A stretch of 23,196 nucleotides of DNA, from positions 1 through 23,196 of the IMG/VR virus record IMGVR_UViG_3300025120_000586; one strand, given 5' to 3'. The translations under genes and the position numbers were made by a program. The notes under the pieces are model-generated. The model ran no database searches. It was given only the letters and a program-made list of their open reading frames with translations, and was not told the DNA's origin. This DNA comes from a virus. Of the stretch, positions 8,432-23,196 are shown in pieces; within the stretch, counting starts at the first letter, position 1, and each line of letters starts with the position of its first letter.

Positions 8432-9859
8432 ATGTGGAAATACCCGTATAAGACTACCCCATACGAGCACCAAAGAAATGCTTTGAATCAATCTGCTGAA
8501 CAAACTCAGTGGGCTTATTTCATGGAAATGGGTACAGGTAAAACTAAAGTTACCATAGATAATATGGCTTATCTTTTTTTTCAAAGAAAAATAAACTCAG
8601 CTTTAATAATTGCACCTAAATCCGTATATCTAAATTGGGAATTAGAAATAGAGATGCACCTTCCAGATGTTTTAAAATATAAAACTTATAAATGGAATAT
8701 AGACAAACCAAAAGATTATCACGCGTTAAGCGAATTTAAAGATTTAAAAATATTTTTAATTAATGTTGAGGCTTTATCTACTAAGAGAGGCTTTGATGCT
8801 TGTGTAGATTATCTCAAGTCAAATAAGTTAAACTTTGTAACGTTGGATGAATCAACCACCATAAAAAATAGATCAGCAAAACGAACAAAGAACATTTTAG
8901 CACTACAAAAATTATCGCTGGTAAGGCGTATATTAACAGGATCCCCAATAACAAAATCTCCATTAGATCTTTATACACAATGTCAATTTTTAAGTCCAGA
9001 ACTATTAGGTTTTTCTAGTTATTTGGCTTTTAGGAACAGATATGCTGAAATGACTGATATCCCAGTCGGTTCTGGAAGATATATAAGTGTGCCTAAATAT
9101 TACAAAAGACTAGAAGAATTAGAAATAAAAATGAAATATTTTTCAACTAGAATTCGTAAGGATCAGTGCTTAGATTTAAAACCAAAAGTAAGACAAAAAA
9201 GATACATTGAATTAGATGGTGAAGGTAAAAGAATTTATGAAAAACTTAGAACTAATGCACTAGCCATTGTTGAAGATAGTACAATATCTTTTTCAAATAA
9301 ACTAACTGAAATAATTAAACTTCATCAGGTCTGTAATGGTTTTACTAAAAATGATGATGGTGAAATAATGACTTTACATAATTCAAAAGTAAATGCTTTA
9401 GATGAAATTTTAGAAGAAACTGATGGAAAAGTAATTATCTGGGCTAATTATATTTATAACATTAAACAACTTATAGATTTTTTAGAAAAGAAATATGGTA
9501 AAAAATCTGTTGTTAGTATATATGGTGCTGTAGATGTTCAATCACGTAAAGAAGCTGTTAAAAGAATTCAAGAAGATCCAAACACACGTTTTCTGGTGGG
9601 TAATCCAACTACAGGAGGGTTTGGTCTTACTCTTACTGCTGTTAATACCGTTATTTATTTTTCTAATAACTACAACTTAGAAGTGAGAAAACAATCAGAA
9701 GACCGTGCTCATAGAATGGGCCAAAAAGGAACTGTTGTTTATATTGATATTGTTGCAAGAAACACATTAGATGAAGCTATTATGAAGTCTTTAACAAGTA
9801 AAGGCCAGATTGCAGCCAAAACATTAGGCGAAGAAGATTTAAGAGACTGGCTGCTGTAA
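8432..9859 (+). CDS. SNF2-family (SF2) DNA helicase/translocase
   Basis: The 475-residue protein contains the full SNF2 core: a Q-motif-like YEHQRNAL (11-18), Walker A MGTGKT (33-38), motif Ia IIAPKSVYLNWE (59-70), motif II LDES (138-141) in place of DEAH, motif III LTGSPI (168-173), motif V GNPTTGGFGLTLT (390-402) and motif VI QSEDRAHRMGQ (421-431). Such enzymes move on duplex DNA and remodel protein-DNA complexes or forks; phage versions occur beside replication genes. The ATG is supported because the Q-motif-like segment begins ten residues later. It is one of four plus-strand genes in the window, is driven by its own promoter, and its last 21 bases overlap the convergent nuclease gene. 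It may start or restart replication, but this is inference. Confidence 0.92.
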   Translation: MWKYPYKTTPYEHQRNALNQSAEQTQWAYFMEMGTGKTKVTIDNMAYLFFQRKINSALIIAPKSVYLNWELEIEMHLPDVLKYKTYKWNIDKPKDYHALSEFKDLKIFLINVEALSTKRGFDACVDYLKSNKLNFVTLDESTTIKNRSAKRTKNILALQKLSLVRRILTGSPITKSPLDLYTQCQFLSPELLGFSSYLAFRNRYAEMTDIPVGSGRYISVPKYYKRLEELEIKMKYFSTRIRKDQCLDLKPKVRQKRYIELDGEGKRIYEKLRTNALAIVEDSTISFSNKLTEIIKLHQVCNGFTKNDDGEIMTLHNSKVNALDEILEETDGKVIIWANYIYNIKQLIDFLEKKYGKKSVVSIYGAVDVQSRKEAVKRIQEDPNTRFLVGNPTTGGFGLTLTAVNTVIYFSNNYNLEVRKQSEDRAHRMGQKGTVVYIDIVARNTLDEAIMKSLTSKGQIAAKTLGEEDLRDWLL

Positions 9860-10523: not shown

Positions 10524-10696
10524 AAATGGTTAGAAAGTACAGCCATAAATATTGCAAACATACCGCCTACAATAATTTTTTCTATTCTATTTATACGTGC
10601 TTCCATCTTATCCATCTTTTCAAAGGTCTGTTTTTGCATTAGCTTACAAATTTTTTCGTGATGATCTATTCTAGCTGATGCAGATTGTTTAGACAC
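10520..10696 (-). CDS. Small membrane protein with N-terminal coiled coil (holin/XhlA-like candidate)
   Basis: A 58-residue protein starts with GTG at 10696-10694, preceded by AGAGGAG with a six-base spacer, a very strong site that decides the start. Residues 1-40 are charged and helical (for example EKMDKMEARINRIEK). Residues 41-54 are hydrophobic (IIVGGMFAIFMAVL) and end in a short SNHL tail. This layout resembles small phage lysis-accessory proteins such as XhlA-type or holin-like proteins, and also many unassigned one-helix proteins. The GTG lies inside the end of the 1122-residue ejection protein gene (8-base overlap), so it is part of the virion operon. The position at the end of the late operon supports, but does not prove, a lysis or membrane role. 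Confidence 0.65.
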   Translation of the reverse strand: MSKQSASARIDHHEKICKLMQKQTFEKMDKMEARINRIEKIIVGGMFAIFMAVLSNHL

Positions 10697-13600
10697 GTTT
10701 AGCTCCTCTGTTTGCTATTGCTTGTCCTAGATTGTCATCTGGAAACACAGCAGCAAATTGTTGTGGATTCACTTGTCCGGTAGCCGGTTGTGTTGGTGCT
10801 TGAGGCATTTGCGCTTGTGGGCCAACTTGATTGACAGGAGCTTCACCTCCTGGTTCAAGTTTATTCGCTTGTGCTGCTGGTAGGAAAGTAGAATTAAATT
10901 CTTTTTGTGCTGTAAGACCACCTTCAATAAAGTTTTCCTCTTCCGCTTGTTCTTCTTCATTAGGAGCTTGCATAACTTCTTCATCATACATTTTATTTAT
11001 TGTTTTCATTGGTACGTTACCTGCGTTCTCTCCAAAGTTTGGTTTTATCATTTCAACATCTTTCATATTAAGATATTCAGTAATTCTTTTAAGATCAATA
11101 TTTTTTGGATCTACAGGTACAAAATCATCATCATCACCAAAAGCTTTATTCATAAATCTTGCAAACGCTTCTCTCTTAGTTCTTAATCCTGCAAGATAAG
11201 CTTTAGGATTTATTATTCCTGCTTGTGTTGTACCAAATGCTTCACCACCATTTAAAATTGCTTTTACTTCTTTAGGAGTAAGTACATCGTTTATTTGTCT
11301 TAATAGGTAGGGATCAGCTAAAATTTTACCCGCTCTTAATGCTGTTGCAAATAATACAAATGGAGCAAAAGGACTAGCTGCAGCTGAGCCACCAAAACCT
11401 AATGCAACACCTGCAAGTGAGCTAGCACCACCAAGTGTTAACCTTCTTTGAATGAATGAAGATGAATTTGTAATTGGTATGTCAGTCAATCTTTTTGTAT
11501 ATTCAACAAAGTCTTGTAGATGACCTAATGCTGTAGCACCTTTTTGTCCACCACCGTACATCTCTTCAATAAATTTATATACGTCCATTGAAGGATCATC
11601 TAATCCTAAGATATCTCTAAATCTTGTTCCATCAAAATCTCTAAAATCATCAGGGCCAAAACGTATACTTGTAACGTCTTCTAACCCGTCTGCAGTTAAA
11701 CGTGAACTTATATCTCCTCCTTGACTTTTTAATGCATTTTTTATGCCAACATTTTCCATTGCTTCATACATATCATCTACACCATTTTGAAATCTTGGAT
11801 CAATTTCTAAATTTTTAAAGGCACCATTATCAAAAGGGGCACTAAATGGAACTCTTGCTTTACCAAATATACCAGCGTTAATTGGCTTAGATTTAAAAGA
11901 AGACATATAAGCGTTGTGCATAAATCTTGCAACTGATGCTTGATATAATTTTTCTCCTGCAGCAGAGTAACCTTCAAATCCTGGTTGTGCACCAATCATT
12001 TTTCTGTATTCCTGAAGAGCTGCTGGACTTCTAGATTTAAATACAGAAGTTTGTATTTTTTCAAATAATTTATCTTTAGGAAGTGTTGCTGCACCTGGAA
12101 TATTAAACAAAGTTTTTTGTGTAAATAAACTCTTATCGAATTTAGCTAAAGCTCCAATAGCAGTAGTACCCTCCTTACCAGTGTAAAATTTCATAATTCT
12201 TGAAAATACTTCATTGGCATCTTTTAATCTTGTATGTAATTGTGAACCAGCATTTATTACTGACTCCATAATTTCTTTACCTTCTTGTGTTTTAGCAATT
12301 TTAGCAGCAGCTCTAGCTGATAGTTCTTCTGTAACTTCAACACCTTCTTTTATAATTTGTTCTTCTGTTTCTTTTAACAATGTTTGAAAAGCTTGTTGAT
12401 TAGTAGGCACATCTCTTACGGCCTCTGCTACTCTTGCAGCGGCTAATTCAGGTGCCATAATTCTTACAGCATCTCCACCACCTAACTCAATCATTCTTTG
12501 TTGTAACTCTTTGTTTTGTAACAAAGATGGAACATTTAATTCTTTTAAAAAACCATGAGCATCTTTTTCTAAAGCCTCCCTTATCATGGCAACTGATTTA
12601 TTAACTGTTTTATATTTTGTTTGTTCCAATGCTTGATTAAGCATCATGGTCATACCCTTATATTGGTTAAAGGTTATTGGTTCTCCTCGTGCTACACCAT
12701 TTGCAAAACTCATAAATTGAGCTAAAGGATCTGAAAATCCTGCTTGCTCCTCAATTGCTTTTAAGTCGAAAGGTCTTCTTCCAGGTCCAGAAGCTTTATT
12801 CATCGCTTGGATGATGTCTGGAAACTGTGCTGAGTTTTGTCTAAGAAAATCATCGGTTGCTTTTAAAGTTTGTGTTAATTTTAGAATAGCAGGATCTCCT
12901 GCAACTGTGTTAATCGCAAAAAATTTTTCATAAGCTTTATCTATTGTTGCTGCGTTTTTTTTAAATGTTTCAACAGCTTGGTTGTAGACTTTTTGCGATA
13001 AAAAAGAATGTGTGTAAATTGGTGCGATAGTTGCAATATTTGAATCCATAAATCCATTAGAAAATGTTTTTTCTGCTGATAACATTCTTCTATCCATTAT
13101 TTTAGAAATGTATGGAAATACACCAACAGTTTTAAAGTATGATTGACCTAATCCAGATAGGGGACCATCTCTCATTGCTGCAAGTAAAGGTATCTCGTAT
13201 CCGTTGTCCCGTGCAAATTTTGCAATTTCCTTTTGAGTTATTCCCGTAGTGCCAAATAATTTATTTAAAATTCCACCAGATGCCATCAATAGTGGTGTAA
13301 GCGCAGCAGCTCCAAAATTAAATAATGCAGCATTCTTTGCTTCAACCATAGCTCTGTCTAAAACATTTAATTTATCTATTTCTTTTTTAGGCATGTTACC
13401 TAAATCTTCCAGTAGGCCATCCATTAAAGCAGGTCCGACAGTTTTATTCATTAAATCATAAGTTGCAGAACCCACTCCAGCACCTATTGTTCCAGATGCA
13501 GCAACTGCAAGTTCTCCTCTTCCAAGAGGACTTCTAATGGCTCTTTCACCTAAATCTAATGTTTTTCCTGCTAATCGTGCTGCACCTTTTAAGAATCTAA

Positions 13601-14057
13601 ATCTACCAGGAAGTTTGTCTGATAGTTTTTCAAAAAAAAATTTCTTACCTTGTGTAAGTTTCATTCCTGTCATGCCAGTTTGTTTATAAGCATCAGCAAT
13701 TTTATCTTTCATGTAGTTTGCTGCCATAAAAGAAGCTGATACATCCCCAGCTAATACAGCACTACTTCTACCAGATAAAATAAAATCTCCTCCTGGAATT
13801 GATGATTCATCCATTCCAAGTGCTGCAGCTAAAGGATCTTTAGCTACTGTTTCTTGTTTAGCTAAATCTTGTCTAGCTTTATCTCTTTTGATAGCAATTT
13901 TTCTTAAATCACCTTTTAAATAACCTTTTTTAAAAAATTGATCTACAGCTCTTAATTGAAGTGGATTTAATGTTTCAGGAGCAAAGGTGTTATCATCAAT
14001 AGTTTTTTGAACTTTATTTAAAAATTCTTGTCTCTCTGGTGAAAGTTTTTCAGCCAT
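10689..14057 (-). CDS. Large internal virion (DNA-ejection) protein
   Basis: The 1122-residue protein is mostly helical, Ala/Lys/Gln-rich, with hydrophobic glycine-rich segments near 182-197, 243-267 and 875-916 that could insert into a membrane. The C-terminal 80 residues are acidic and then Pro/Gln/Gly-rich and probably disordered. Size, composition and position after two other helical virion proteins match the ejection proteins (T7 gp15/gp16-like place) of podoviruses, which leave the capsid and form a channel across the cell envelope. No lysozyme or transglycosylase motif was seen. The ATG overlaps the stop of the upstream gene (TAATG). The gene is the largest in the window. The functional assignment is by context and composition. 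Confidence 0.7.
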   Translation of the reverse strand: MAEKLSPERQEFLNKVQKTIDDNTFAPETLNPLQLRAVDQFFKKGYLKGDLRKIAIKRDKARQDLAKQETVAKDPLAAALGMDESSIPGGDFILSGRSSAVLAGDVSASFMAANYMKDKIADAYKQTGMTGMKLTQGKKFFFEKLSDKLPGRFRFLKGAARLAGKTLDLGERAIRSPLGRGELAVAASGTIGAGVGSATYDLMNKTVGPALMDGLLEDLGNMPKKEIDKLNVLDRAMVEAKNAALFNFGAAALTPLLMASGGILNKLFGTTGITQKEIAKFARDNGYEIPLLAAMRDGPLSGLGQSYFKTVGVFPYISKIMDRRMLSAEKTFSNGFMDSNIATIAPIYTHSFLSQKVYNQAVETFKKNAATIDKAYEKFFAINTVAGDPAILKLTQTLKATDDFLRQNSAQFPDIIQAMNKASGPGRRPFDLKAIEEQAGFSDPLAQFMSFANGVARGEPITFNQYKGMTMMLNQALEQTKYKTVNKSVAMIREALEKDAHGFLKELNVPSLLQNKELQQRMIELGGGDAVRIMAPELAAARVAEAVRDVPTNQQAFQTLLKETEEQIIKEGVEVTEELSARAAAKIAKTQEGKEIMESVINAGSQLHTRLKDANEVFSRIMKFYTGKEGTTAIGALAKFDKSLFTQKTLFNIPGAATLPKDKLFEKIQTSVFKSRSPAALQEYRKMIGAQPGFEGYSAAGEKLYQASVARFMHNAYMSSFKSKPINAGIFGKARVPFSAPFDNGAFKNLEIDPRFQNGVDDMYEAMENVGIKNALKSQGGDISSRLTADGLEDVTSIRFGPDDFRDFDGTRFRDILGLDDPSMDVYKFIEEMYGGGQKGATALGHLQDFVEYTKRLTDIPITNSSSFIQRRLTLGGASSLAGVALGFGGSAAASPFAPFVLFATALRAGKILADPYLLRQINDVLTPKEVKAILNGGEAFGTTQAGIINPKAYLAGLRTKREAFARFMNKAFGDDDDFVPVDPKNIDLKRITEYLNMKDVEMIKPNFGENAGNVPMKTINKMYDEEVMQAPNEEEQAEEENFIEGGLTAQKEFNSTFLPAAQANKLEPGGEAPVNQVGPQAQMPQAPTQPATGQVNPQQFAAVFPDDNLGQAIANRGAKRV

Positions 14058-16534
14058 TAGTTAACTCCAAAAAGGTTAAATAATTCAGCGTCTGTCGTTG
14101 GCACTGATCTTTGTGCTTGTCCCAAAGCTTGATCAATAGGAGCTATTAATCTTGCTACGTCATTGGGAGTATTACCCATTTGATAGAACCTAGATAATCT
14201 AGCAGCATTTTTCTCTTCTACTTTTTTTAATAACTGTTCATATTTTTGTATAATTTTTGCATCTGGTTCTCCCGATAAAGTACCAGTTAATTCTTCAATT
14301 AATTGTAAGTCTCTGTTTGTCAATCTGTCTTTGTCTTTCAATGCATTAGCCAATGTATATGTTAACATTCTAGCATTAACCTGTAATTGACCTAAAACTT
14401 CTGACGCGCTCTTAGGACCATCAGCAGTATTTATTACAGCGTCTGGATTTTTTTTCATATAAGCTTCTGTAGCTTCTGTAAAATCATCTAAAATTCTTGT
14501 TGTACTTTCATCAAAAGTTTCTTTTGAAAAAATACCTTTAGCATTATCGTATTTTTCATTTTCTCCAATACCGGATTGAGTAAAAGTATTTCCTACAGAT
14601 CCTTTAAACCCTTCAGCAATCTCAGATGGTATGTTTCCAATTGTTTCTGCAAATTTTAAAATTATTCCAGATGCACCAATTGCAGTTTTACCTTCAGGTG
14701 TTTTCATTAAAGCTATTTGTTCTTTAAGAGTTTTAGCAGCCATTGCACCATCAGCAACAAGTCTTAAGTTATCTACATAAGCTGAAGAATCTTGTTCAGG
14801 AAAGAAAGTTGCATCTACAGTGCTTACTTCTTTTTCAGCACCAGTTTGCGGATCAAAAATAAAAATTTGTGCAGTATCTTTATTTTGGAAAGCTTCATAA
14901 TATTGACCACCCATAGAAATTGAACCTCTTTGTCTTTTAATTTTACCTCCTGCATCCATAGCCTCTTTTAGCATGTCATTTCTTGCTTCTATCAAATCAG
15001 AGTTGTAACTTAAAACAGTTGAAGCCCAGTCTCTGTAAGCTTCATCATTCTTCATTTTGACTAATACCTTAGCATCAATTGCAGGGCCTAAAGCATTACC
15101 AAATACTTCAGCTAGTCCCCCCAAACCACCTTTCATAGTTTTACCTGATAATAATCCAGCAGCTAGTTTCATTAAGAAAATTCTTTGTGGATCCATCTGA
15201 GTGTTTCTAGGATCTGCTTTTAAAAATTGTGTCATATCAATCGTGTCCGCAGCTTTTTTTGCATCTCTAATTTCTGGATCTTCAATATTATTGTTATCTG
15301 TTTGTGTACCATCTCCACCAGCAAATTCTTTTGAAATACCTGGTTTCTTTATAATTGGTGCATTGTTTTTTTCTTTTATTGTTTCTACTGTTTTTTGTTC
15401 TTTAATAAATTTAGGATGATTCGGATCGTTCACTATATTTGGAACTTGAGCATAGAGCTCATCACTCTTAATAATTTCATCTACATTACTTGACTCAATT
15501 TTGCCATCAGTAATAGCCATTGCTAAATTTGTTGCTTTATTAATATCTTTCATATCTTTTTGTACCATTAAAGCATTTCTTAATTCTTCAATTGATTTAG
15601 CTCTTTCAAATAAATCAACTCTTAAAGTTGATTCTTGCTGCATTGCATCATCAGGACTCATGGAAGCAATATCTTGATTCATTTCTATTTGTCTCTCTTT
15701 ATCTTTTACATTTTGAACTAATTGATCTACATCTTGAAAATATCTTCCGTATTCTTTTGAATTATCTATATAGTCTCTCATCTCTCCAGCAACTCTTTGT
15801 TCATAAGATTTTGATCCTGGAGGGCCTTCTGGAGTTTTATCTAAACCACCTGCAACAAGACTTCTTCCTGAGCCTGCAGCAATAACCATTTTTCCAACAT
15901 CACTTGATACCATTGGTCTTTGTCCTCCAAATGAAAGATCTCTGTTAAATATGTCCATAGCTTTTTTTTCAGTAATGTCATTTGCTCTTGCATAATCTTT
16001 GACTAATTTTGATTCATCTATATATCCTTTAGCACCACCCGTTACAGCCAATGCTCCACCAATACCAATAGCTCCAATTGGATTAGAAGCACCTAATCTC
16101 ATACCACTCCCTAACATTCTTGAAAGTGTTTGAGCAGTTTTACCCTTTCCCAAGGCTAAAGGTATTGAAGCTAACTCACCAGCAGCAGCTGTTTTTAAAA
16201 TTGGATCTGGTATTCCAGCCATTTCTGCGCCTGCATATAGTGCAGTTAAACCAGTCAAACCTTTTGCAAACTTTGCAGTACCTGCTTTAATTTTACCTTT
16301 TCCATAACCTGTTATGTATTCACCGGTATTTGGATTGTAAGAAAAGGACTTTCCTTTTGGCCCTTGAAACTGAGGGGGGAAAACTGAATATTGTGATTTG
16401 CTTAAAAATTGAGGACCTTGCGTTTGTCCAGGCCCTTGAAAGATTCCAGTCTTTGCTCTAATTAGTTTCAACGCACCTGTACGAAGTGCTTCCCTTCTGA
16501 ACATAGGTCTGTTTAAAACTTTGTTTAAAGACAT
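14057..16534 (-). CDS. Internal virion / ejection protein, 825 residues
   Basis: The N-terminus is basic (MSLNKVLNRPMFRREALRTG). Residues about 85-170 are rich in Gly/Ala/Leu with several possible membrane-entering helices (GAIGIGGALAVTGGAKG near 154-170). From about 220 onward the protein is charged and helical with coiled-coil character, including a loop with asparagines and acidic residues near 360-400. The pattern of a hydrophobic start and a long helical body fits proteins stored in the capsid core and ejected with the DNA. The start and stop form TAATG junctions with both neighbours. I cannot assign it to a particular T7 homolog; the virion role is inferred from operon position. Confidence 0.65.
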   Translation of the reverse strand: MSLNKVLNRPMFRREALRTGALKLIRAKTGIFQGPGQTQGPQFLSKSQYSVFPPQFQGPKGKSFSYNPNTGEYITGYGKGKIKAGTAKFAKGLTGLTALYAGAEMAGIPDPILKTAAAGELASIPLALGKGKTAQTLSRMLGSGMRLGASNPIGAIGIGGALAVTGGAKGYIDESKLVKDYARANDITEKKAMDIFNRDLSFGGQRPMVSSDVGKMVIAAGSGRSLVAGGLDKTPEGPPGSKSYEQRVAGEMRDYIDNSKEYGRYFQDVDQLVQNVKDKERQIEMNQDIASMSPDDAMQQESTLRVDLFERAKSIEELRNALMVQKDMKDINKATNLAMAITDGKIESSNVDEIIKSDELYAQVPNIVNDPNHPKFIKEQKTVETIKEKNNAPIIKKPGISKEFAGGDGTQTDNNNIEDPEIRDAKKAADTIDMTQFLKADPRNTQMDPQRIFLMKLAAGLLSGKTMKGGLGGLAEVFGNALGPAIDAKVLVKMKNDEAYRDWASTVLSYNSDLIEARNDMLKEAMDAGGKIKRQRGSISMGGQYYEAFQNKDTAQIFIFDPQTGAEKEVSTVDATFFPEQDSSAYVDNLRLVADGAMAAKTLKEQIALMKTPEGKTAIGASGIILKFAETIGNIPSEIAEGFKGSVGNTFTQSGIGENEKYDNAKGIFSKETFDESTTRILDDFTEATEAYMKKNPDAVINTADGPKSASEVLGQLQVNARMLTYTLANALKDKDRLTNRDLQLIEELTGTLSGEPDAKIIQKYEQLLKKVEEKNAARLSRFYQMGNTPNDVARLIAPIDQALGQAQRSVPTTDAELFNLFGVN

Positions 16535-17382
16535 TAAGCTTGCCTATTTTGATTAGGTGCAAATGCTGAAAATGCTCCGATACCTGTTCCTACAGCTTGC
16601 GCAAAAGGACTAGTTGATGGAGTAGTTCCCATTGTAACACCTGATTGTGTTTTAGGTCCTGCTGCATACAAGTTAGCTAAAAATTCAGCTCTTTGATATG
16701 GTTCATATTGTTGTTGTAATGTTGATTGTCTTTTCGCATCAAGAGTTGCTTGTGCTAGTTGTCTTTGAATACCACCCGCAGCCATAAGTTGATTAATGTC
16801 TGCTTGAGACATTTGTTGCTGCTGTAAACCTAACGCTCCTAACTGTTGTCCAGCAGTCAAACCAACTTGTTGTTGTCTTTGTGCTGCACCTAGTGCTGTG
16901 TTAAATCCTTGAGCTTGAGCTTGACCCATTGCTGATAAAGTTCTTCCTTGAAGTTCTGCTTGTTGAACTCCTTCACGTCCTCCACCAAAAGCTCCTGATT
17001 GAAGAGCGGTAGCACCCATTTTATTTTGCATCATTTGGCCTTGTCTACCAATTTCATCAGTTACATATTGTTGGTAAGGGTTTAAGTATCGAGATATTTG
17101 TTGAGCACCAATTGGTGATGCTGCCCCTTGAATTTGCGAAATACCTTGTCCTACTGTGCCTGAACCAATACCTGTAATTCCTGCTTGGGTAAGACCTTGT
17201 TGTTCTAATCCACCAAAACCTGCTACTTGATAATCTGGAAGATTTATTGGTTTTTGCGCTATACTACGCGCAATATCCATTAACTCTATTTTTCTTTCTT
17301 CTATACCTGGTGCTTCTCTAACAATGTTAGTAGTTGTTGATGGTGGAGCTGCTCCTCCGCCTCCTCCTCCGAAAAAACTCAT
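16534..17382 (-). CDS. Gln/Gly-rich virion protein, 282 residues
   Basis: The protein begins MSFFGGGGGGAAPPSTTTN, a flexible glycine tract, followed by a helical region. Its centre (about 100-225) is strongly rich in Gln, Ala and Gly, with QSGAFGGGREGVQQAELQGR near 127-146 as a conserved-looking element. The end is Ser/Thr/Pro-rich. Proteins with the AFGGGREG-type signature are frequent in marine podovirus structural operons near internal virion proteins. It is likely a capsid-internal or ejection component. It is coupled to the 825-residue gene by TAATG and starts four bases after the acetyltransferase-like gene ends. The function is inferred. Confidence 0.65.
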   Translation of the reverse strand: MSFFGGGGGGAAPPSTTTNIVREAPGIEERKIELMDIARSIAQKPINLPDYQVAGFGGLEQQGLTQAGITGIGSGTVGQGISQIQGAASPIGAQQISRYLNPYQQYVTDEIGRQGQMMQNKMGATALQSGAFGGGREGVQQAELQGRTLSAMGQAQAQGFNTALGAAQRQQQVGLTAGQQLGALGLQQQQMSQADINQLMAAGGIQRQLAQATLDAKRQSTLQQQYEPYQRAEFLANLYAAGPKTQSGVTMGTTPSTSPFAQAVGTGIGAFSAFAPNQNRQA

Positions 17383-17386
17383 ATTA

Positions 17387-17851
17387 TTATCCTATCCATT
17401 TTTCTAGTTGTACATGTTTCTTTTGCCATCCCCATTTTTTGGAAACTTTTTCCCATCCAGGTCTGGCCATAATACTCATTCTTTTACATTTATTTGCTTT
17501 TGCAAATTCTGTAACTGAATTAATTAAATTGTCTTCCCATAATTCTCTTCTCTTTCCTGTACATATTACAATCTCGTATTGATTGTAGTTAGGCATTACA
17601 CCAATTCGGCCAACACAAATACCAAATACTTTATTTTCTTCAGACTCATCAGAACCAAACATGATCCAACATTGCATCATATCTTTTTTTAATTCGTTCA
17701 TAACCCAAGGAGACTCAGCATACTTTCCAGAAAAAGCTAAAGCCTCTGAAACCATGAATTCAGCTAAAGGCCAAAACTTTTCTACATCTTTTGGTTCAAG
17801 AGGTAAAATACTTACTAATGGTTTAATTTGTTTTTTGTTTGCTGTTGCCAT
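17387..17851 (-). CDS. GNAT-fold-like internal virion protein (T7 gp13-like)
   Basis: The 154-residue protein shows the outline of a GNAT acetyltransferase: a helical N-terminus, a strand pair near 62-95 (CWIMFGSD, VFGICVGRIG), then a helix, and the C-terminal signature ARPGWEKVSKKWGW (129-142), which also occurs in T7 gp13-like and related phage proteins. The acetyl-CoA phosphate loop (Q/R-x-x-G-x-G/A) is not recognisable: the equivalent place reads GKRREL (99-104). Enzymatic activity is therefore doubtful, and a structural role in the internal core or tail is more likely. It overlaps the end of the 342-residue gene by 29 bases. The fold is probable; the role is inferred from position. Confidence 0.65.
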   Translation of the reverse strand: MATANKKQIKPLVSILPLEPKDVEKFWPLAEFMVSEALAFSGKYAESPWVMNELKKDMMQCWIMFGSDESEENKVFGICVGRIGVMPNYNQYEIVICTGKRRELWEDNLINSVTEFAKANKCKRMSIMARPGWEKVSKKWGWQKKHVQLEKWIG

Positions 17852-18851
17852 TTGCCTCCTTTAATAAATCAAATACTCTTTTGTATCTTGATTGTTGTTC
17901 ATAAAAATACTTAGCACCTTTTTCTCTCATGTCTTTAATGCTATTTGGGTTAGCCCCTGCAATAATACCAGCTCCTAATACACCATCAGCTCTTGTTACA
18001 AATTCTCCATCTGCTAATTGAGCCAACATAGTATCTTCATCTTTATCACCAACACCAGCACCATCTTCAACATATCCAGTTGCTCTTACATAATTGTTAG
18101 AATCATTTTCATCATGTGATGTTTTTGAAGGTAAGTAATTAATACCACCTTCGTTAAATTTTTTAATCTCTGCTAGACCACCTGTGTTAAAAGTTTCTTT
18201 AGATACGGAGTAAGGTCCTATTCTTCTATCGTCCAGACCTGCTTCTTCAGGTGAATACATTTGTTCGTATTCTTTTTCTTGTCCTGTTTCTGGATCTATG
18301 TAAGTATATTTTGGTCTTTCTTTTTTAAGATCTAAGTAACTCATGTTGTAACCAGGCATATAAATATCAGTTGGTCCTTGATTAAAAGCACCTGCTAAAT
18401 ATGAACCACCTCCTACAGCTAATCCGACTTTTAGTGGATCGTATCCTTCAATAATATTTCCTTTAGCATCTTTATTTCTAAGAATATCTAATAAACTTCC
18501 ACCATCATTTACAGGACCTGAGTTTTTTTTATTTCGGATCATATCCGAAGCAAAAGTTGCTTCGCCTGTCGCATTCATGTTTGGATACATAGTTGGAGCA
18601 ACAGTTGCTCTTGCTTGTGGCACACCAGGTATACCACCCAGTGATTTTGTTAAATTCATATTAGCAAATTGTTGTGATGCTGCCGATCCTGGAAACATGT
18701 TCATTCCTGCAGTACCTAAACTGTAACCTGTGTAAGCACCTACAGCGCCACCAAGTATTCTTCCAATTCCAGAAGCACCTGAATCTTTTGCTCCTTTGTA
18801 GCCTTTATAACCACCATAAGCAGCCATTGCGTAAGGTATGAGGTGTAACAT
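17823..18851 (-). CDS. Virion protein with glycine-rich membrane-like N-terminus
   Basis: The N-terminal 50 residues (MLHLIPYAMAAYGGYKGYKG and a following GGAVGAYTGYSLG stretch) form a glycine-zipper-like hydrophobic segment. The centre is Pro/Tyr-rich. The C-terminal part contains a motif known from many phage structural proteins, LAQLADGEFVTRADGVLGAG (276-295), preceded by GDKDEDTM. Residues 296-342 are a charged helix. The ribosome site is AAAGGAGAA about ten bases before the ATG, with a 12-bp palindrome (18868-18879) directly upstream. The position between glycosyltransferases and the ejection cassette suggests a tail or internal virion component. The exact role is unknown. Confidence 0.65.
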   Translation of the reverse strand: MLHLIPYAMAAYGGYKGYKGAKDSGASGIGRILGGAVGAYTGYSLGTAGMNMFPGSAASQQFANMNLTKSLGGIPGVPQARATVAPTMYPNMNATGEATFASDMIRNKKNSGPVNDGGSLLDILRNKDAKGNIIEGYDPLKVGLAVGGGSYLAGAFNQGPTDIYMPGYNMSYLDLKKERPKYTYIDPETGQEKEYEQMYSPEEAGLDDRRIGPYSVSKETFNTGGLAEIKKFNEGGINYLPSKTSHDENDSNNYVRATGYVEDGAGVGDKDEDTMLAQLADGEFVTRADGVLGAGIIAGANPNSIKDMREKGAKYFYEQQSRYKRVFDLLKEANGNSKQKTN

Positions 18852-18867
18852 TAAATATATTCTCCTT

Positions 18868-18879
18868 TTAAGATCTTAA
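18868..18879. repeat. Perfect 12-bp palindrome TTAAGATCTTAA
   Basis: The palindrome lies in the 45-base gap between the glycosyltransferase gene and the 342-residue virion gene, directly upstream of the latter's ribosome site. It may be a small operator or chance; it has no loop and no T tract, so it is not a terminator. Confidence 0.3.
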
Positions 18880-18896
18880 GTTTGAATAATACCATT

Positions 18897-19790
18897 TTAC
18901 TTAGGTATTATCAACTCATCGGCAAAACGTCCTTTGTATTGATGCTCACCAATATGCATGATTGGGTCGTCAATAAAGGCATGACACTTACCACCTACGT
19001 CTTTCCAAAGTTTACAAAAACTAAAATCCTCACCTAAATAAGTCTTAGTTTTAGGGTCGTGCATTGTATCAAAAAAATTCCACAGGTAAGGCCTGTTTAC
19101 ATATTCACCATTGATAACCGTTTTTTGAACTATGTTTTTATCTGGATATTCTTTAATTAATTTATCAAAAACTGATCTTTTAATTAACATACATCCGGTA
19201 GGGCTGTGCGTGACCTCAATGACACCTTTATTAACAACTATATCATTGGTATCCGCTACCCTCATAGGATAACTATTTGTCCATTTTTGTATGTCGTCTG
19301 GTTTTTTAACATCACCTTTTTTAATTGCCTCTAATGCTTTTTTCCAATTAAATGTTTTTAATGGATAAGGTATAGAAATAACGTCCTTATCTCTATCAAT
19401 CATTTTAAATATAGACTCAGCATTCATTAAAATATCTGAATCTACAAATAACATATGTGTCATGCCCGATTCAATAAATCCTGAAACACAAAGATTTCTA
19501 CCTTGTGTAACTAAAGATGATTTTAACAATTGAAATTGTACTTGCACCTTTTTCTCTAAACACATTTTTTGTAGCTCAAGTAAACCTTGTGTATAATGTA
19601 TTGAACAATCACTATGAACAGGAGTGGCAACAAACAAGGACATTTTATCCTTACGTTTTCCGGTATCCGTTGTCCAAATAGGATTAATTCTTTTTTCGTA
19701 TTCTGTTACTGCAATAGGATCCGAAGTTACTTTAAGGTCTTTTAGTGTTTGGTATGTGTCTTCATTAACATATTCATTTATTTTTTTCAT
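18897..19790 (-). CDS. GT-A-fold glycosyltransferase
   Basis: The 297-residue protein has a Rossmann-like strand SLFVATPVHSD (51-61), a RN pair (R98, N99) in the nucleotide-sugar site, and the metal-binding D117-S-D119 (LFVDSDI), as in family 2 and Anp1-like glycosyltransferases. A later GEDFSFCKLW (253-262) gives the usual acidic catalytic pair E254/D255, and H279 in MHIGEH may be the third metal ligand. These are all features of an active enzyme. It overlaps the end of the GT-B gene by 17 bases, so the two are translated together. The acceptor could be a virion protein, host surface sugar or other molecule. Glycosyltransferases are known in larger phages but are less usual inside a podovirus-like virion operon. 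Confidence 0.85.
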   Translation of the reverse strand: MKKINEYVNEDTYQTLKDLKVTSDPIAVTEYEKRINPIWTTDTGKRKDKMSLFVATPVHSDCSIHYTQGLLELQKMCLEKKVQVQFQLLKSSLVTQGRNLCVSGFIESGMTHMLFVDSDILMNAESIFKMIDRDKDVISIPYPLKTFNWKKALEAIKKGDVKKPDDIQKWTNSYPMRVADTNDIVVNKGVIEVTHSPTGCMLIKRSVFDKLIKEYPDKNIVQKTVINGEYVNRPYLWNFFDTMHDPKTKTYLGEDFSFCKLWKDVGGKCHAFIDDPIMHIGEHQYKGRFADELIIPK

Positions 19791-20706
19791 AAAGAGCTCC
19801 TTTTAAAAAACTTGTCCACTCATCGCCCTTTTTTTCCCAACTATAAAATCTTTTGTAAAATCTTTGTTGTTCTTCCAAATGTTCTTGAACATAAGTCTTA
19901 TGTAAATACTGTGAGGCTACTTCAATAGCTACCGCTGTATCTTTTGCCATTTGTTCATAATTAGTATCATAATTTATATATACAGGCCACTCAGCACATG
20001 TTTCATATAACGCACCAAAATTATTTGTAATTACATGAACTCCAGCAGCAAGCGCTTCTAGGGCTGATGCACAAAATGTTTCTTCAAAATTACTTGGATA
20101 AACATACAAATCGTAATTAGTTATATGTTCTAAGATATATTCATTTGGTTTATATCCAATATAATTTACATTACCTAATTGTCTTGCTTGATCGTATAAA
20201 GGTTTAAAATCTTTTTCATTTTTATTAGAAAAAGCATCTCCATAAACTTTTGAAGAACTATAAACATCTAAAGTAATATTAGGGTTTTTTACTAATTGCA
20301 TAGCTGCAAGAAGTATATTCAATCCCCTCCATGGAGTATTATGATGCAAAATTTTAATTGGATCATCTTTTTTATATACTTTTCTCTTAGGGAAATTACT
20401 TGTACCATTTTTAATTACAATTGATCTTCCTGTTGGTATGTTAAAAATGTATCTAAATTTTTCATAATTCCAATGACTGTTAAAAATATACCAATCATAT
20501 TTGTCATGATTTTTAGGATCAGAAAACCAAGAGTGTAAGTTTGATTGATCATATGAATTTTTTTGCCAAAGTATATTTAGTTTATTTGGATCAATAGGAA
20601 CTTTACCTGGTATTGATGTACAAATTTGTACTTGATCTAATAATTCTTTCGGAACATGCTTGTGAAGCATCTCCATTTGTAGCTCAGTAGCTCCACGTGG
20701 TTCCAT
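19774..20706 (-). CDS. GT-B-fold glycosyltransferase, GT4-like
   Basis: The 310-residue protein resembles family 4 glycosyltransferases. Residues 118-126 (KILHHNTPW) begin the C-terminal Rossmann domain, NVNYIGYKP (179-187) matches the linker strand, and PSNFEETFCASALEALAAGV (204-223) carries the donor-binding E209-x7-E217 motif. The N-terminal domain is short (MEPRGATELQ then helices); typical GT4 enzymes are about 350-400 residues, so the acceptor domain is reduced. The ATG overlaps the stop of the upstream small gene (TAATG). It pairs with the following GT-A enzyme and the two may act in sequence. The substrate is unknown. Confidence 0.85.
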   Translation of the reverse strand: MEPRGATELQMEMLHKHVPKELLDQVQICTSIPGKVPIDPNKLNILWQKNSYDQSNLHSWFSDPKNHDKYDWYIFNSHWNYEKFRYIFNIPTGRSIVIKNGTSNFPKRKVYKKDDPIKILHHNTPWRGLNILLAAMQLVKNPNITLDVYSSSKVYGDAFSNKNEKDFKPLYDQARQLGNVNYIGYKPNEYILEHITNYDLYVYPSNFEETFCASALEALAAGVHVITNNFGALYETCAEWPVYINYDTNYEQMAKDTAVAIEVASQYLHKTYVQEHLEEQQRFYKRFYSWEKKGDEWTSFLKGALYEKNK

Positions 20707-20903
20707 TATTTCTTTGTATGTGCGCCCAAGGTTACTCTTGTTACAGTTATTTCGAGGTCTTGTCTAAAATCATCCACAGTAGTGTCAGTATTGGGGTTAG
20801 CAACATCAGAATTAAAATCATCTTTGCTAGCATATACCTTACCTGTTCTTTTATGTTTGATAATTTCTTTAGTTTCTGCAGGAATTTTAACTAGATCATT
20901 CAT
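20706..20903 (-). CDS. Conserved small phage protein, 65 residues
   Basis: The protein starts MNDLVKIPAETKEIIKHKRT and has a basic first third and an acidic, threonine-rich second half (NTDTTVDDFRQDLEI near 38-52). It has no membrane segment. Similar short proteins with VKIPAETKEIIKHKRTGKVY-like starts occur in marine phage structural operons. It overlaps the 45-residue gene (ATGA) on one side and the GT4 gene (TAATG) on the other, which supports it as a real gene of the virion operon. The function is unknown; a small virion or assembly protein is possible. Confidence 0.7.
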   Translation of the reverse strand: MNDLVKIPAETKEIIKHKRTGKVYASKDDFNSDVANPNTDTTVDDFRQDLEITVTRVTLGAHTKK

Positions 20904-21037
20904 TTTTGTCTACGACCTTGTCTATTATATTTTTTATTATTTTGCAACTTCTTTTTTTTATTCGGATTTTTACTATGTCGTCTAGGTCTTTTTCTAGGTT
21001 GATCTCTAACAACAAAGTCTTTAAATTTTCTAGCCAT
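20900..21037 (-). CDS. Very basic 45-residue protein
   Basis: An ATG at 21037-21035 with AGGAA four bases upstream opens a 45-codon frame ending in TGA at 20902-20900. More than half of the residues are Lys or Arg (examples: RDQPRKRPRRHSKNPNKKKK), and the protein has no acidic patch beyond two Asp residues near the start. It is probably disordered and binds nucleic acid, possibly as a packaged DNA- or RNA-binding peptide. The ends overlap the neighbours by 8 bases (upstream) and by ATGA (downstream), which is typical for genes of this operon. Similar tiny basic proteins are known in marine phages without a proven role. Confidence 0.75.
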   Translation of the reverse strand: MARKFKDFVVRDQPRKRPRRHSKNPNKKKKLQNNKKYNRQGRRQK

Positions 21038-21365
21038 TTTCCTGTGATCTGTCTATGAGCGCATAACTAACTGCACCAGTAATTGTGTTTGCACTTCCTG
21101 CTTGAACTTTAAGGACATCACTTGCTTCCATATTTAAACTTGATGTTATCATGTTTGTAAAATTTTTGTTTAATTGTGCATGACTTACTTCAACATCCGA
21201 TCCTCCAGATTTTTGTAAAAAAACATCTACGTCCACGTTTGAAGCAGTTTTATGGTTTGCTTGAAATGATTTAACAATAATAGTTGCATCAGTAGGACAA
21301 GTAAGAACCGTTGTCTTATCTGTGTTTGTTAAATCAAATGTTTCGCTTTTATATCTAATTGTCAT
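21030..21365 (-). CDS. Small beta-rich virion protein, 111 residues
   Basis: The protein is predicted to be almost all beta strand, with Thr/Val/Ser-rich sequence such as TTVLTCPTDATIIVKSFQA (18-36) and VDVFLQKSGGSDVEV. It ends in a short polar tail. This pattern is common for minor tail or head-decoration proteins in marine phages. It has no signal peptide or catalytic motif. It starts by ATGA overlap with the preceding 54-residue gene and overlaps the following 45-residue gene by 8 bases, so it is expressed with the tail gene. A structural role is inferred. Confidence 0.7.
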   Translation of the reverse strand: MTIRYKSETFDLTNTDKTTVLTCPTDATIIVKSFQANHKTASNVDVDVFLQKSGGSDVEVSHAQLNKNFTNMITSSLNMEASDVLKVQAGSANTITGAVSYALIDRSQENG

Positions 21366-21526
21366 TGCATAAAGTAATTAAACGTATCTTGTTCATTTTT
21401 CAAGTCTTGTTGATACGATGTATTTAATTGATTTTCAATAGTAGCTAAACCTTGGTTTATTTGTCTAAAACCTTCCGCTGAATATTCTTGTGGGGGCTCA
21501 GGTACATAAACATTTATTTTTGCCAT
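21362..21526 (-). CDS. Short helical protein, 54 residues
   Basis: ATG at 21526-21524 overlaps the stop of the large tail gene (TAATG), and TGA at 21364-21362 overlaps the next ATG (ATGA). The protein begins MAKINVYVPEPPQEYS and continues as a polar, Gln-rich helix (RQINQGLATIENQLNTSYQQ, 21-40) that could form a coiled coil. No membrane segment is present. Exact coupling at both ends strongly suggests a real gene, most likely a small virion or assembly factor. No family is recognised. Confidence 0.75.
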   Translation of the reverse strand: MAKINVYVPEPPQEYSAEGFRQINQGLATIENQLNTSYQQDLKNEQDTFNYFMQ

Positions 21527-23196
21527 TATCTTCGTCCATCTACATTAACGTCTGCTCTAAATGTACCAAATCTCCATGTTTCATTAACGGCTGTGTTTTG
21601 TATTTTAATATTTGCAAGTCTTCCTCTAGCTCTTGTATCTATTTTTTGTGTAGTTGAGTTTATAGTAAAAGGACCTAATTGTGAACTTGTTCCTGCATCG
21701 ACAGGAAAATTTTTAAGAAATATTGTTACTACAGCGTTACCTTGTAAATTTTTAAAATCAGGTAAAAATCTACTAACTCTTAACAAGTACTCACCATCTC
21801 CTTCAGTTGGTAAATCAAAATCGCCTGATTGTATGTAAGCTGGAATTGCTGTTGTTGTACCATTTAATGCTACCTCATTATTTCCTACTTCATGTGCATA
21901 ATATAGTGAAGACCCAAATGTATTAGTCGCTCCACTTAAAATAGGTAACGATGGTGTACTTGTTGTAGTATATTCAGTTGCATAAGGTACGTCATAAGTA
22001 CTAGCATCTGCATAAGAACTTCTAGCAAGACTCATCGTTGACCAAGTATTTTCCACATAATTATAAGTTACTGATCTATTATTTTGTGTAGCAGGATTTC
22101 CCGAAGGTGTTCCTGCAGGATAGAACCAAACTATTTCATTAAATAAAGAATTGTGAGACGCATAAATAATTTCATTAGAAGAATAGTTTACCCCAACATT
22201 TGAACCGGTAGTCGTGAATACAAAATCTTCTACAAGTGATGGAAGTAATTTAACTGTACCATCAAATACAAAGAATCCTCCTCCTGAACCCATCCAATAA
22301 ACCCTACCATCTGCGTAAACAACTGCGTGTTGACCAATACATCCACAGTTAGAACCCACTTGTCTTATTGAAAAAGTAAATGGAGGACCAACAAATTGCA
22401 TAGTATAAGCTGCTTGGTCTGTTAAAATTAAATTATAATCCTTACCTGAAACGGCAGCTACAATTTTATTACCTGTATCCAATCTAAAAGTACCCGCTGT
22501 ATTAACTGACGTTGGTTGATAAACACTGTAATTTTCTTGATCACTAAATCTAATAAACATAGGATCTTGTGTTGTTGTATCTCCTATTGTTGTTTCAGTT
22601 CCAAAATGAACAACGTGTCTATCTCTATCTGAAGTAATGGTAAGTCTTGTTTTTGTAGGAGCTCCAGCCATGATTACAGCTCTAACTTCTAAAGGATTTG
22701 ACACAGCTGGATTCCATACAAAAGTTTTACCATCTTTAACTGTAGCAATTAATTGCGCACCAAAATTATCAAGTGACCATGATCCAGGATCTAGAACAAC
22801 TGAAGAAGTTGTAGAACCTGAACCCCAAGTTAATCTACTCCATGTACTTGTACCCCAACCATAACCATAAGTTTGAATTGTAGGGCCTATTTCTTCGTAA
22901 GGATTAATACTAGCACTCCCTGCAGTAGACATACCTGTACCAGTTTCATTAGATTTCATTTGTATTGTAAATGTATTTGTTGTTACGGTTAATATTTCAA
23001 AAGTAAAATCTTGAAAATTAGCAACCGTAAAACCTGTTGCACCACCTCCTGGTAGTGATACGGAAGTAAATGTAATATATTCACCAACGTCTAAACCATG
23101 ACTAGCTTTAGTAACGGTTACTACATTTGAGTTTTGTGTTGATGTAAAAGTTGCACCAGTTATTGCTGTTGCAAGTGGTGTAACGTCATAAAATTT
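21526..23196 (-). CDS. Large beta-rich tail protein (tail nozzle/tubular B-like), 5' end cut
   Basis: The frame is open to the right edge; the internal ATG at 22959 is not the start, because the 79 codons upstream stay open with protein-like sequence (GLDVGEYITFTSVSLPGGG and similar). At least 556 residues are visible. The protein is rich in Thr, Ser, Gly, Tyr and Asn, with beta-propeller-like repeats such as VYWMGSGGGFFVFDG and TDQAAYTMQFVGPPFTFSIR. This look is typical of podovirus tail nozzle or tubular proteins (T7 gp12-like, P22 gp10-like) that close the tail and carry receptor-binding parts. The family assignment is by composition, pattern and position and not by a diagnostic motif. It heads the visible part of the virion operon. 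Confidence 0.65.
   Translation of the reverse strand, partial: KFYDVTPLATAITGATFTSTQNSNVVTVTKASHGLDVGEYITFTSVSLPGGGATGFTVANFQDFTFEILTVTTNTFTIQMKSNETGTGMSTAGSASINPYEEIGPTIQTYGYGWGTSTWSRLTWGSGSTTSSVVLDPGSWSLDNFGAQLIATVKDGKTFVWNPAVSNPLEVRAVIMAGAPTKTRLTITSDRDRHVVHFGTETTIGDTTTQDPMFIRFSDQENYSVYQPTSVNTAGTFRLDTGNKIVAAVSGKDYNLILTDQAAYTMQFVGPPFTFSIRQVGSNCGCIGQHAVVYADGRVYWMGSGGGFFVFDGTVKLLPSLVEDFVFTTTGSNVGVNYSSNEIIYASHNSLFNEIVWFYPAGTPSGNPATQNNRSVTYNYVENTWSTMSLARSSYADASTYDVPYATEYTTTSTPSLPILSGATNTFGSSLYYAHEVGNNEVALNGTTTAIPAYIQSGDFDLPTEGDGEYLLRVSRFLPDFKNLQGNAVVTIFLKNFPVDAGTSSQLGPFTINSTTQKIDTRARGRLANIKIQNTAVNETWRFGTFRADVNVDGRR

What the first reader, a model, noticed from the sequence alone, without database searches (positions are those of the whole stretch)
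18897..20706. Two different glycosyltransferases inside the virion operon
A GT4-like (GT-B) and a GT-A enzyme overlap by 17 bases and sit between the tail genes and the ejection genes, and both retain catalytic motifs. They might decorate tail or capsid proteins, or change the host surface to block other phages. The pairing of two folds in a compact podovirus-like genome is unusual.
Basis: partly seen in the sequence, partly recalled or inferred. Interest (0 to 1): 0.6.

Follow-up and report, generated by a model that had tools for sequence, protein, structure and literature searches.

The report
Glycosyltransferase pair in pelagiphage virion operon
Phages of the ocean's most abundant bacterium carry two adjacent sugar-attaching enzymes among their particle-building genes; relatives swap hydroxylase and sugar-decorating genes in beside them, which suggests that the phage chemically decorates its own particle proteins.

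Summary
A 297-aa GT-A and a 310-aa GT4-type (GT-B) enzyme overlap by 17 nt, have intact conserved motifs, and lie between the tail nozzle gene and the ejection genes of an HTVC023P-type (SAR11) podophage fragment. The pair is not odd for its lineage. It was present in every HTVC023P/027P-like contig that could be scored (32 of 32), in one order. It was absent from the same slot in the 023Pt_psg01-like (0 of 29) and CRP-901-like (0 of 7) clades, so it is a clade-fixed insertion. The two genes co-evolve (Mantel r 0.9), but recombine away from the neighbouring tail genes. The unexpected part is that 31 of 127 relatives carry extra genes directly beside the pair. Of 63 such proteins, 55 are 2OG-Fe(II)/JmjC-type oxygenases from nine unrelated clusters. 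Four are NodU/CmcH-like carbamoyltransferases and two match a sugar O-methyltransferase model. The adjacent interval nozzle-h111 has 2 of 37. I therefore favour a protein-modification locus: the pair builds a short glycan, most likely on a virion protein and possibly on hydroxylated residues. The acceptor is not shown. Host-surface modification and DNA glycosylation remain rivals, although no TS/dCMP-hydroxymethylase family gene was found in any GT+ record searched.

The parts
18897..19790 (-). GT-A glycosyltransferase (PHROG 1574), 297 aa
   Evidence: ORF; PHROG 1.4e-34; AlphaFold and PDB matches
19434..19442 (-). GT-A DxD metal/nucleotide-sugar motif D117-S-D119
   Evidence: D117 and D119 invariant in 35 homologues; sequence
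19026..19031 (-). GT-A E254-D255 (GEDF motif)
   Evidence: invariant in 35 homologues
19774..20706 (-). GT-B, GT4-type glycosyltransferase (PHROG 2170, PF00534), 310 aa
20056..20082 (-). GT-B E209-x7-E217 motif of GT4-type retaining enzymes
   Evidence: both Glu invariant in 35 homologues
19774..19790 (-). 17-nt overlap of GT-B 3' end and GT-A 5' end; overlaps of 11/14/17/20/26 nt (same reading-frame relation) in 72 of 78 scored relatives
19797..19804 (-). Shine-Dalgarno-like AAAAGGAG for GT-A, inside the end of GT-B
   Evidence: sequence
20706..20903 (-). s65: small conserved gene just upstream, 1-nt overlap with GT-B in 99 relatives; co-varies with the GTs (r 0.8); a weak homologue lies in GT-less relatives
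21030..21365 (-). h111: small virion-cassette protein; marks the upstream edge of the cargo hot-spot
21526..23196 (-). tail nozzle/stabilisation-like structural protein (PHROG 3287), cut by the window end
17823..18851 (-). gp79 homologue, first gene downstream of the pair; in CRP-901-like phages this gene follows h111 directly
17387..17851 (-). homologue of HTVC023P gp80; same position as the GNAT-annotated gene of CRP-901
16534..17382 (-). DNA ejection protein homologue (PHROG 4287)
10689..16534 (-). two large late genes (825 and 1122 aa), presumed internal virion proteins by position
   Evidence: synteny with HTVC023P gp82/83

Best explanation
The pair is the fixed core of a modification locus inside the virion operon. 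GT-B and GT-A are made together with the tail and ejection proteins, in the cytoplasm, from host nucleotide sugars. They act in sequence to build a short glycan on a virion protein. In many relatives the locus also carries exchangeable 2OG-Fe(II)/JmjC-type oxygenases and sugar-tailoring enzymes (carbamoyltransferase, sugar O-methyltransferase-like). These would create a hydroxyl acceptor and/or trim the glycan, so related phages would bear different coats. Shown: intact conserved enzymes, fixation in the clade, co-evolution, translational-coupling signals, and the cargo pattern. Inferred: sequential action, the virion as acceptor, and linkage through hydroxylated residues.
For: Both enzymes keep catalytic motifs and are under purifying selection. 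Both genes were present in 32 of 32 scorable HTVC023P/027P-like contigs, always in order and on one strand. A Shine-Dalgarno site for GT-A lies inside GT-B, with conserved overlaps. The pair co-evolves at r 0.90, against 0.24-0.56 for most neighbours (0.6-0.8 for s65 and the ejection gene ej1). Cargo beside the pair: 55 of 63 oxygenase-like, 4 carbamoyltransferases, 2 RMNT_CmcI hits, against 2 of 37 oxygenases in the adjacent nozzle-h111 interval. The best GT-A structural match is STIV A197 (Z 17.4); it is reported essential and proposed to glycosylate the STIV capsid protein (PMC10551542). LH3 accessory domain, COLGALT1 and mimivirus R699 follow. No membrane segment or signal peptide is apparent. 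Virion glycosylation by phage glycosyltransferases is established for mycobacteriophages Che8, Corndog and Myrna.
Against: No acceptor or sugar is identified. GT-less relatives build virions with the same cassette, so the pair is not needed for assembly in general. Three quarters of GT+ relatives have no adjacent cargo, and GT-less psg01-like phages also carry 2OG oxygenases upstream. The LH3 domain matched is its non-catalytic accessory domain. No sequence homology to the Che8 glycosyltransferases was found. Distant homologues in T4-like phages lie in replication modules.
Confidence: 0.5

Rival explanations
1. The enzymes change the SAR11 cell surface (LPS or other surface glycan) late in infection, blocking superinfection or stopping progeny from adsorbing to debris of the lysed host.
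For: Clusters of glycosyltransferases near tail fibres in pelagimyophages were given this role (PMC7029224). GT4 enzymes, carbamoyltransferases and O-methyltransferases also occur in surface-polysaccharide pathways; weak NCBIfam hits are to LPS and exopolysaccharide enzymes.
Against: No flippase, lipid-carrier or membrane component was seen in the annotated complete relatives. The genes sit in the virion operon of obligately lytic phages. Diverse protein-hydroxylase-like cargo is not typical of surface pathways.
Confidence: 0.22
2. They glycosylate phage DNA at a hydroxylated base, as T4 alpha/beta-glucosyltransferases do, with 2OG enzymes or a hydroxymethylase supplying the hydroxyl.
For: GT-A homologues (25-30% identity) in T4-like phages phiM12, Cr30, DLP6 and vB_OspM_OC lie beside gp46/47 and sliding-clamp genes. 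Some HTVC023P clades carry a thymidine-hypermodification pair. Carbamoyltransferases are known to me to act on hydroxymethylcytosine in some viruses (from memory).
Against: No TS/dCMP-hydroxymethylase family gene in HTVC023P, HTVC027P or any of the other GT+ records searched. C5-methyltransferase in 1 of 14. No Tet_JBP match in 11 records, though that search had a silent control. The gene sits among virion genes, not replication genes. The Cr30 and phiM12 PF00303 proteins are ordinary thymidylate synthases by PHROG.
Confidence: 0.15
3. The pair and its cargo are a mobile hot-spot of accessory genes placed in the tail region by recombination, with mixed unrelated functions.
For: Mosaic breakpoint: L085 is 92% identical over 18299-20713 and 66% in the nozzle gene. 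2OG genes are common in marine phage tail regions.
Against: The pair itself is fixed and co-inherited; the cargo is confined to two enzyme themes rather than random genes.
Confidence: 0.13

Closest known systems
Pelagibacter phages HTVC023P gp77/gp78 and HTVC027P gp80/gp81
   Same: Same two genes, same order, same neighbours; 69/57% and 56/47% identity
   Different: GT-A annotated only as hypothetical; the pair, its clade-restricted fixation and its cargo were not described in the texts read
Mycobacteriophage virion glycosyltransferases (Che8 gp108-gp110, Corndog, Myrna)
   Same: Adjacent phage glycosyltransferases; capsid and tail-tube glycosylation reported
   Different: No sequence homology found; in Che8 they lie near the genome end, not in the virion operon
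STIV A197 glycosyltransferase
   Same: Closest solved structure to GT-A (Z 17.4, 2.2 A over 161 residues, 23% identity)
   Different: Single gene of an archaeal virus; donor and acceptor also unknown
Collagen-type hydroxylysine glycosylation (LH3/PLOD3, COLGALT1) and mimivirus R699
   Same: Next-best folds to GT-A (Z 15-17); that system couples a 2OG-Fe(II) hydroxylase with glycosyltransferases
   Different: The LH3 match is to the non-catalytic accessory domain; here hydroxylases are separate, exchangeable and often absent beside the pair
T4 DNA glucosyltransferases
   Same: Two phage glycosyltransferases in one genome
   Different: No hydroxymethylase gene found here; pair lies in the virion operon

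Membership tests
HTVC023P-type pelagiphage | Colinear virion and replication genes with HTVC023P | tested here: met
   Nozzle 81%, GT-B 69%, GT-A 57-58% identity and the same order as HTVC023P
GT4-type retaining GT-B glycosyltransferase | PF00534 domain, GT-B fold, E-x7-E | tested here: met
   PF00534 5.7e-15; Z 25 to HepE; E209-x7-E217 invariant
GT-A glycosyltransferase | GT-A fold with DxD motif | tested here: met
   Z 17.4 to STIV A197, 14.8 to Mnn9; D117xD119 invariant
GT62 (Anp1/Mnn9) | Above Pfam Anp1 cut-off | tested here: not met
   20.8 bits against a cut-off of 28.8
Phage virion protein glycosylation system | Glycan on a virion protein that depends on the phage glycosyltransferase | not testable with these tools
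   needs virion mass spectrometry
Phage virion protein glycosylation system | Homology to the Che8 glycosyltransferases | tested here: inconclusive
   hhalign probability under 1% with single-sequence templates
Phage DNA glycosylation system | Source of hydroxylated base (PF00303 hydroxymethylase or TET/JBP) | tested here: inconclusive
   PF00303 not found in complete HTVC023P/027P nor in other GT+ records, control rang; Tet_JBP control silent
Hydroxylation-linked glycosylation (collagen/Skp1-like) | 2OG hydroxylase acting on the same substrate as the glycosyltransferases | tested here: inconclusive
   Genetic association only: 55 of 63 adjacent cargo proteins; also oxygenases in GT-less relatives

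The most novel reading that the evidence does not exclude
Probability: 0.25. Interest if true: 0.8.

Novelty: new variant of a known kind. Interest (0 to 1): 0.52.

Why it matters
[quoted passage not shown] A fixed glycosylation locus with swappable hydroxylases beside it would mean that a large part of marine phage particles carry variable chemical coats. It would also give a concrete role to some of the many unexplained 2OG-Fe(II) oxygenases in marine phage tail regions. Two cultured phages (HTVC023P, HTVC027P) make it directly testable by virion mass spectrometry.

Tried and rejected
Che8 gp108-110 as sequence homologues: no match. Solved-structure sequence search: nothing usable. Anti-phage defence models: none. 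tRNA or promoter/terminator signals near the pair: none above chance. Small gene s65 as a GT-specific partner: rejected as GT-specific, since psg01-like phages without the pair carry a weak homologue. DNA-modification reading through the Cr30/phiM12 PF00303 genes: these score as thymidylate synthases. Cellular origin of GT-A: chromosomal hits are remote (21-27%); the close hits in genome collections are phage contigs in MAGs/SAGs. The DLP6 paper could not be used on restriction resistance because the relevant sentence in the held text is incomplete.

Full report
OBSERVATION. The two ORFs are as described: GT-A 18897-19790 and GT-B 19774-20706, both on the minus strand, with a 17-nt overlap. 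GT-B has a Glycos_transf_1 domain and matches PHROG 2170. GT-A is recognised only by PHROG 1574 (unknown function) and, below threshold, by Anp1. AlphaFold models built from 35-row alignments are confident (mean pLDDT 82 and 91). The closest solved folds are STIV A197, the LH3 accessory domain, COLGALT1, mimivirus R699 and Mnn9 for GT-A, and GT4 enzymes for GT-B (HepE, SenB, BshA; also the protein O-GlcNAc transferases GtfA and SdgB further down). Catalytic motifs are invariant across 35 homologues. There are no internal stops in 77 pairs, and median dN/dS is 0.26 (GT-A) and 0.16 (GT-B).

CONTEXT. The window is a 23-kb IMG/VR record. It is colinear with Pelagibacter phages HTVC023P and HTVC027P (58-61 kb), which carry the same pair as gp77/78 and gp80/81. 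Upstream lie s65, h111 and the nozzle gene; downstream lie the gp79 homologue, the HTVC023P gp80 homologue and ejection genes. A Shine-Dalgarno-like AAAAGGAG for GT-A lies inside GT-B, and overlaps of 11-26 nt in the same frame relation recur in 72 of 78 scored relatives. GT-B starts with a 1-nt overlap on s65 in 99 relatives.

DISTRIBUTION. IMG/VR was sampled with the nozzle protein as an anchor independent of the glycosyltransferases. All 32 HTVC023P/027P-like contigs that were scored with both genes reachable have both, and two more are cut after GT-B. Anchoring on the nozzle of 023Pt_psg01 gave 0 of 29, and on CRP-901 0 of 7. Two remote hits of the CRP-901 scan proved to be 027P-like and have the pair. 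In the GT-less phages the same cassette runs without the pair. The pair is therefore a clade-fixed insertion in the virion cassette, not a requirement for assembly in general. A SAR11 single-cell assembly (L208) carries the locus, supporting the host assignment.

CO-INHERITANCE. Distance matrices of GT-A and GT-B correlate at r 0.90-0.91; GT-nozzle is about 0.5, GT-h111 0.24, GT-s65 0.8 and GT-ej1 0.6-0.7. Contig L085 matches the window at 92% over 18299-20713, then 77% and 66% upstream into the nozzle gene, a recombination edge near the GT-B start.

CARGO. Between h111 and GT-B, and once between GT-B and GT-A (L177), many relatives carry extra genes: 31 of 127 distinct intervals exceed 500 bp, against none among 20 GT-less intervals (Fisher p 0.008, not corrected for relatedness). 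Of 63 cargo proteins from 33 loci, 55 are oxygenase-like in nine unrelated blastp clusters (2OG-FeII_Oxy_5, 2OG-FeII_Oxy_3, JmjC_2, DUF6445), and all 55 contain an H-x-[D/E/H]...H pattern. Four are NodU/CmcH-like carbamoyltransferases, found in those records only inside this cassette. Two match Rhamnosyl O-methyltransferase/CmcI. In the neighbouring nozzle-h111 interval of the same phages, 2 of 37 proteins match an oxygenase. Caution: 2OG oxygenases also occur upstream of the nozzle in GT+ and GT-less phages, so the tail region attracts them in general. The window itself has no cargo beside the pair, and its upstream tail region is not in the fragment.

MECHANISM. Soluble enzymes without membrane segments, made from the virion operon and accompanied by hydroxylases and sugar-tailoring enzymes, fit cytoplasmic glycosylation of virion proteins. 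Two transferases of different folds suggest two sequential steps. The acceptor, the sugars and the link to hydroxylation are inferred. Precedents are virion glycosylation in mycobacteriophages, the STIV A197/B345 proposal and, as an analogy only, LH3/COLGALT1.

RIVALS. Surface modification is the published reading for pelagimyophage glycosyltransferases and is not excluded. DNA glycosylation is weakened by the absence of PF00303 genes in complete HTVC023P and HTVC027P and in all other GT+ records tested, most of them fragments, but distant GT-A homologues beside replication genes in T4-like phages keep it open for the wider family.

KNOWN OR NEW. Wittmers et al. (PMC9599517) listed three glycosyltransferases, several 2OG oxygenases and DNA-hypermodification pairs in HTVC023P-type phages. 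In the main-text passages I read they did not describe the adjacent pair, its clade restriction or its cargo; supplements were not available. I rate it a new variant of a known kind.

Noticed in passing
L086 177-1676, L138 4145-5644, L124 1529-3031, L180 8133-9635: About 500-aa NodU/CmcH-like carbamoyltransferases inside the glycosyltransferase cassette of four relatives, found nowhere else in the 22 records searched.
   Followed up: partly
L144 2618-3439, L186 1930-2748: Proteins matching Rhamnosyl O-methyltransferase/CmcI (PF04989) between h111 and GT-B.
   Followed up: partly
L177 4387-4845: JmjC/cupin-like gene inserted exactly between GT-B and GT-A, overlapping both neighbours.
   Followed up: partly
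cargo proteins of alignment A9: PHROG 274 ('DNA endonuclease V') and PHROG 1644 ('minor coat protein') match many proteins that Pfam calls 2OG-Fe(II) oxygenases; those PHROG names may be misleading here.
   Followed up: no
L199 6055-6912, L201 5959-6936, L203 5049-5897, L337 3956-4762: In T4-like phages DLP6, phiM12, Cr30 and vB_OspM_OC the GT-A homologue lies among gp46/47 and sliding-clamp genes, while the GT-B homologue lies elsewhere in the genome.
   Followed up: partly
L207, L209, L210, L212-L214, L216: Contigs filed as Maricaulis sp. IN14 MAG carry this phage cassette and look like pelagiphage contamination; the SAR11 single-cell contig L208 also carries it.
   Followed up: partly
window 18299-20713 against L085: Sharp mosaic edge near the GT-B start: 92% nucleotide identity on one side, 66% in the nozzle gene.
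   Followed up: yes
window 8432-9859 (+): A 475-aa SNF2-like helicase is the only large gene on the plus strand, as in HTVC023P gp86 and HTVC027P gp87.
   Followed up: no
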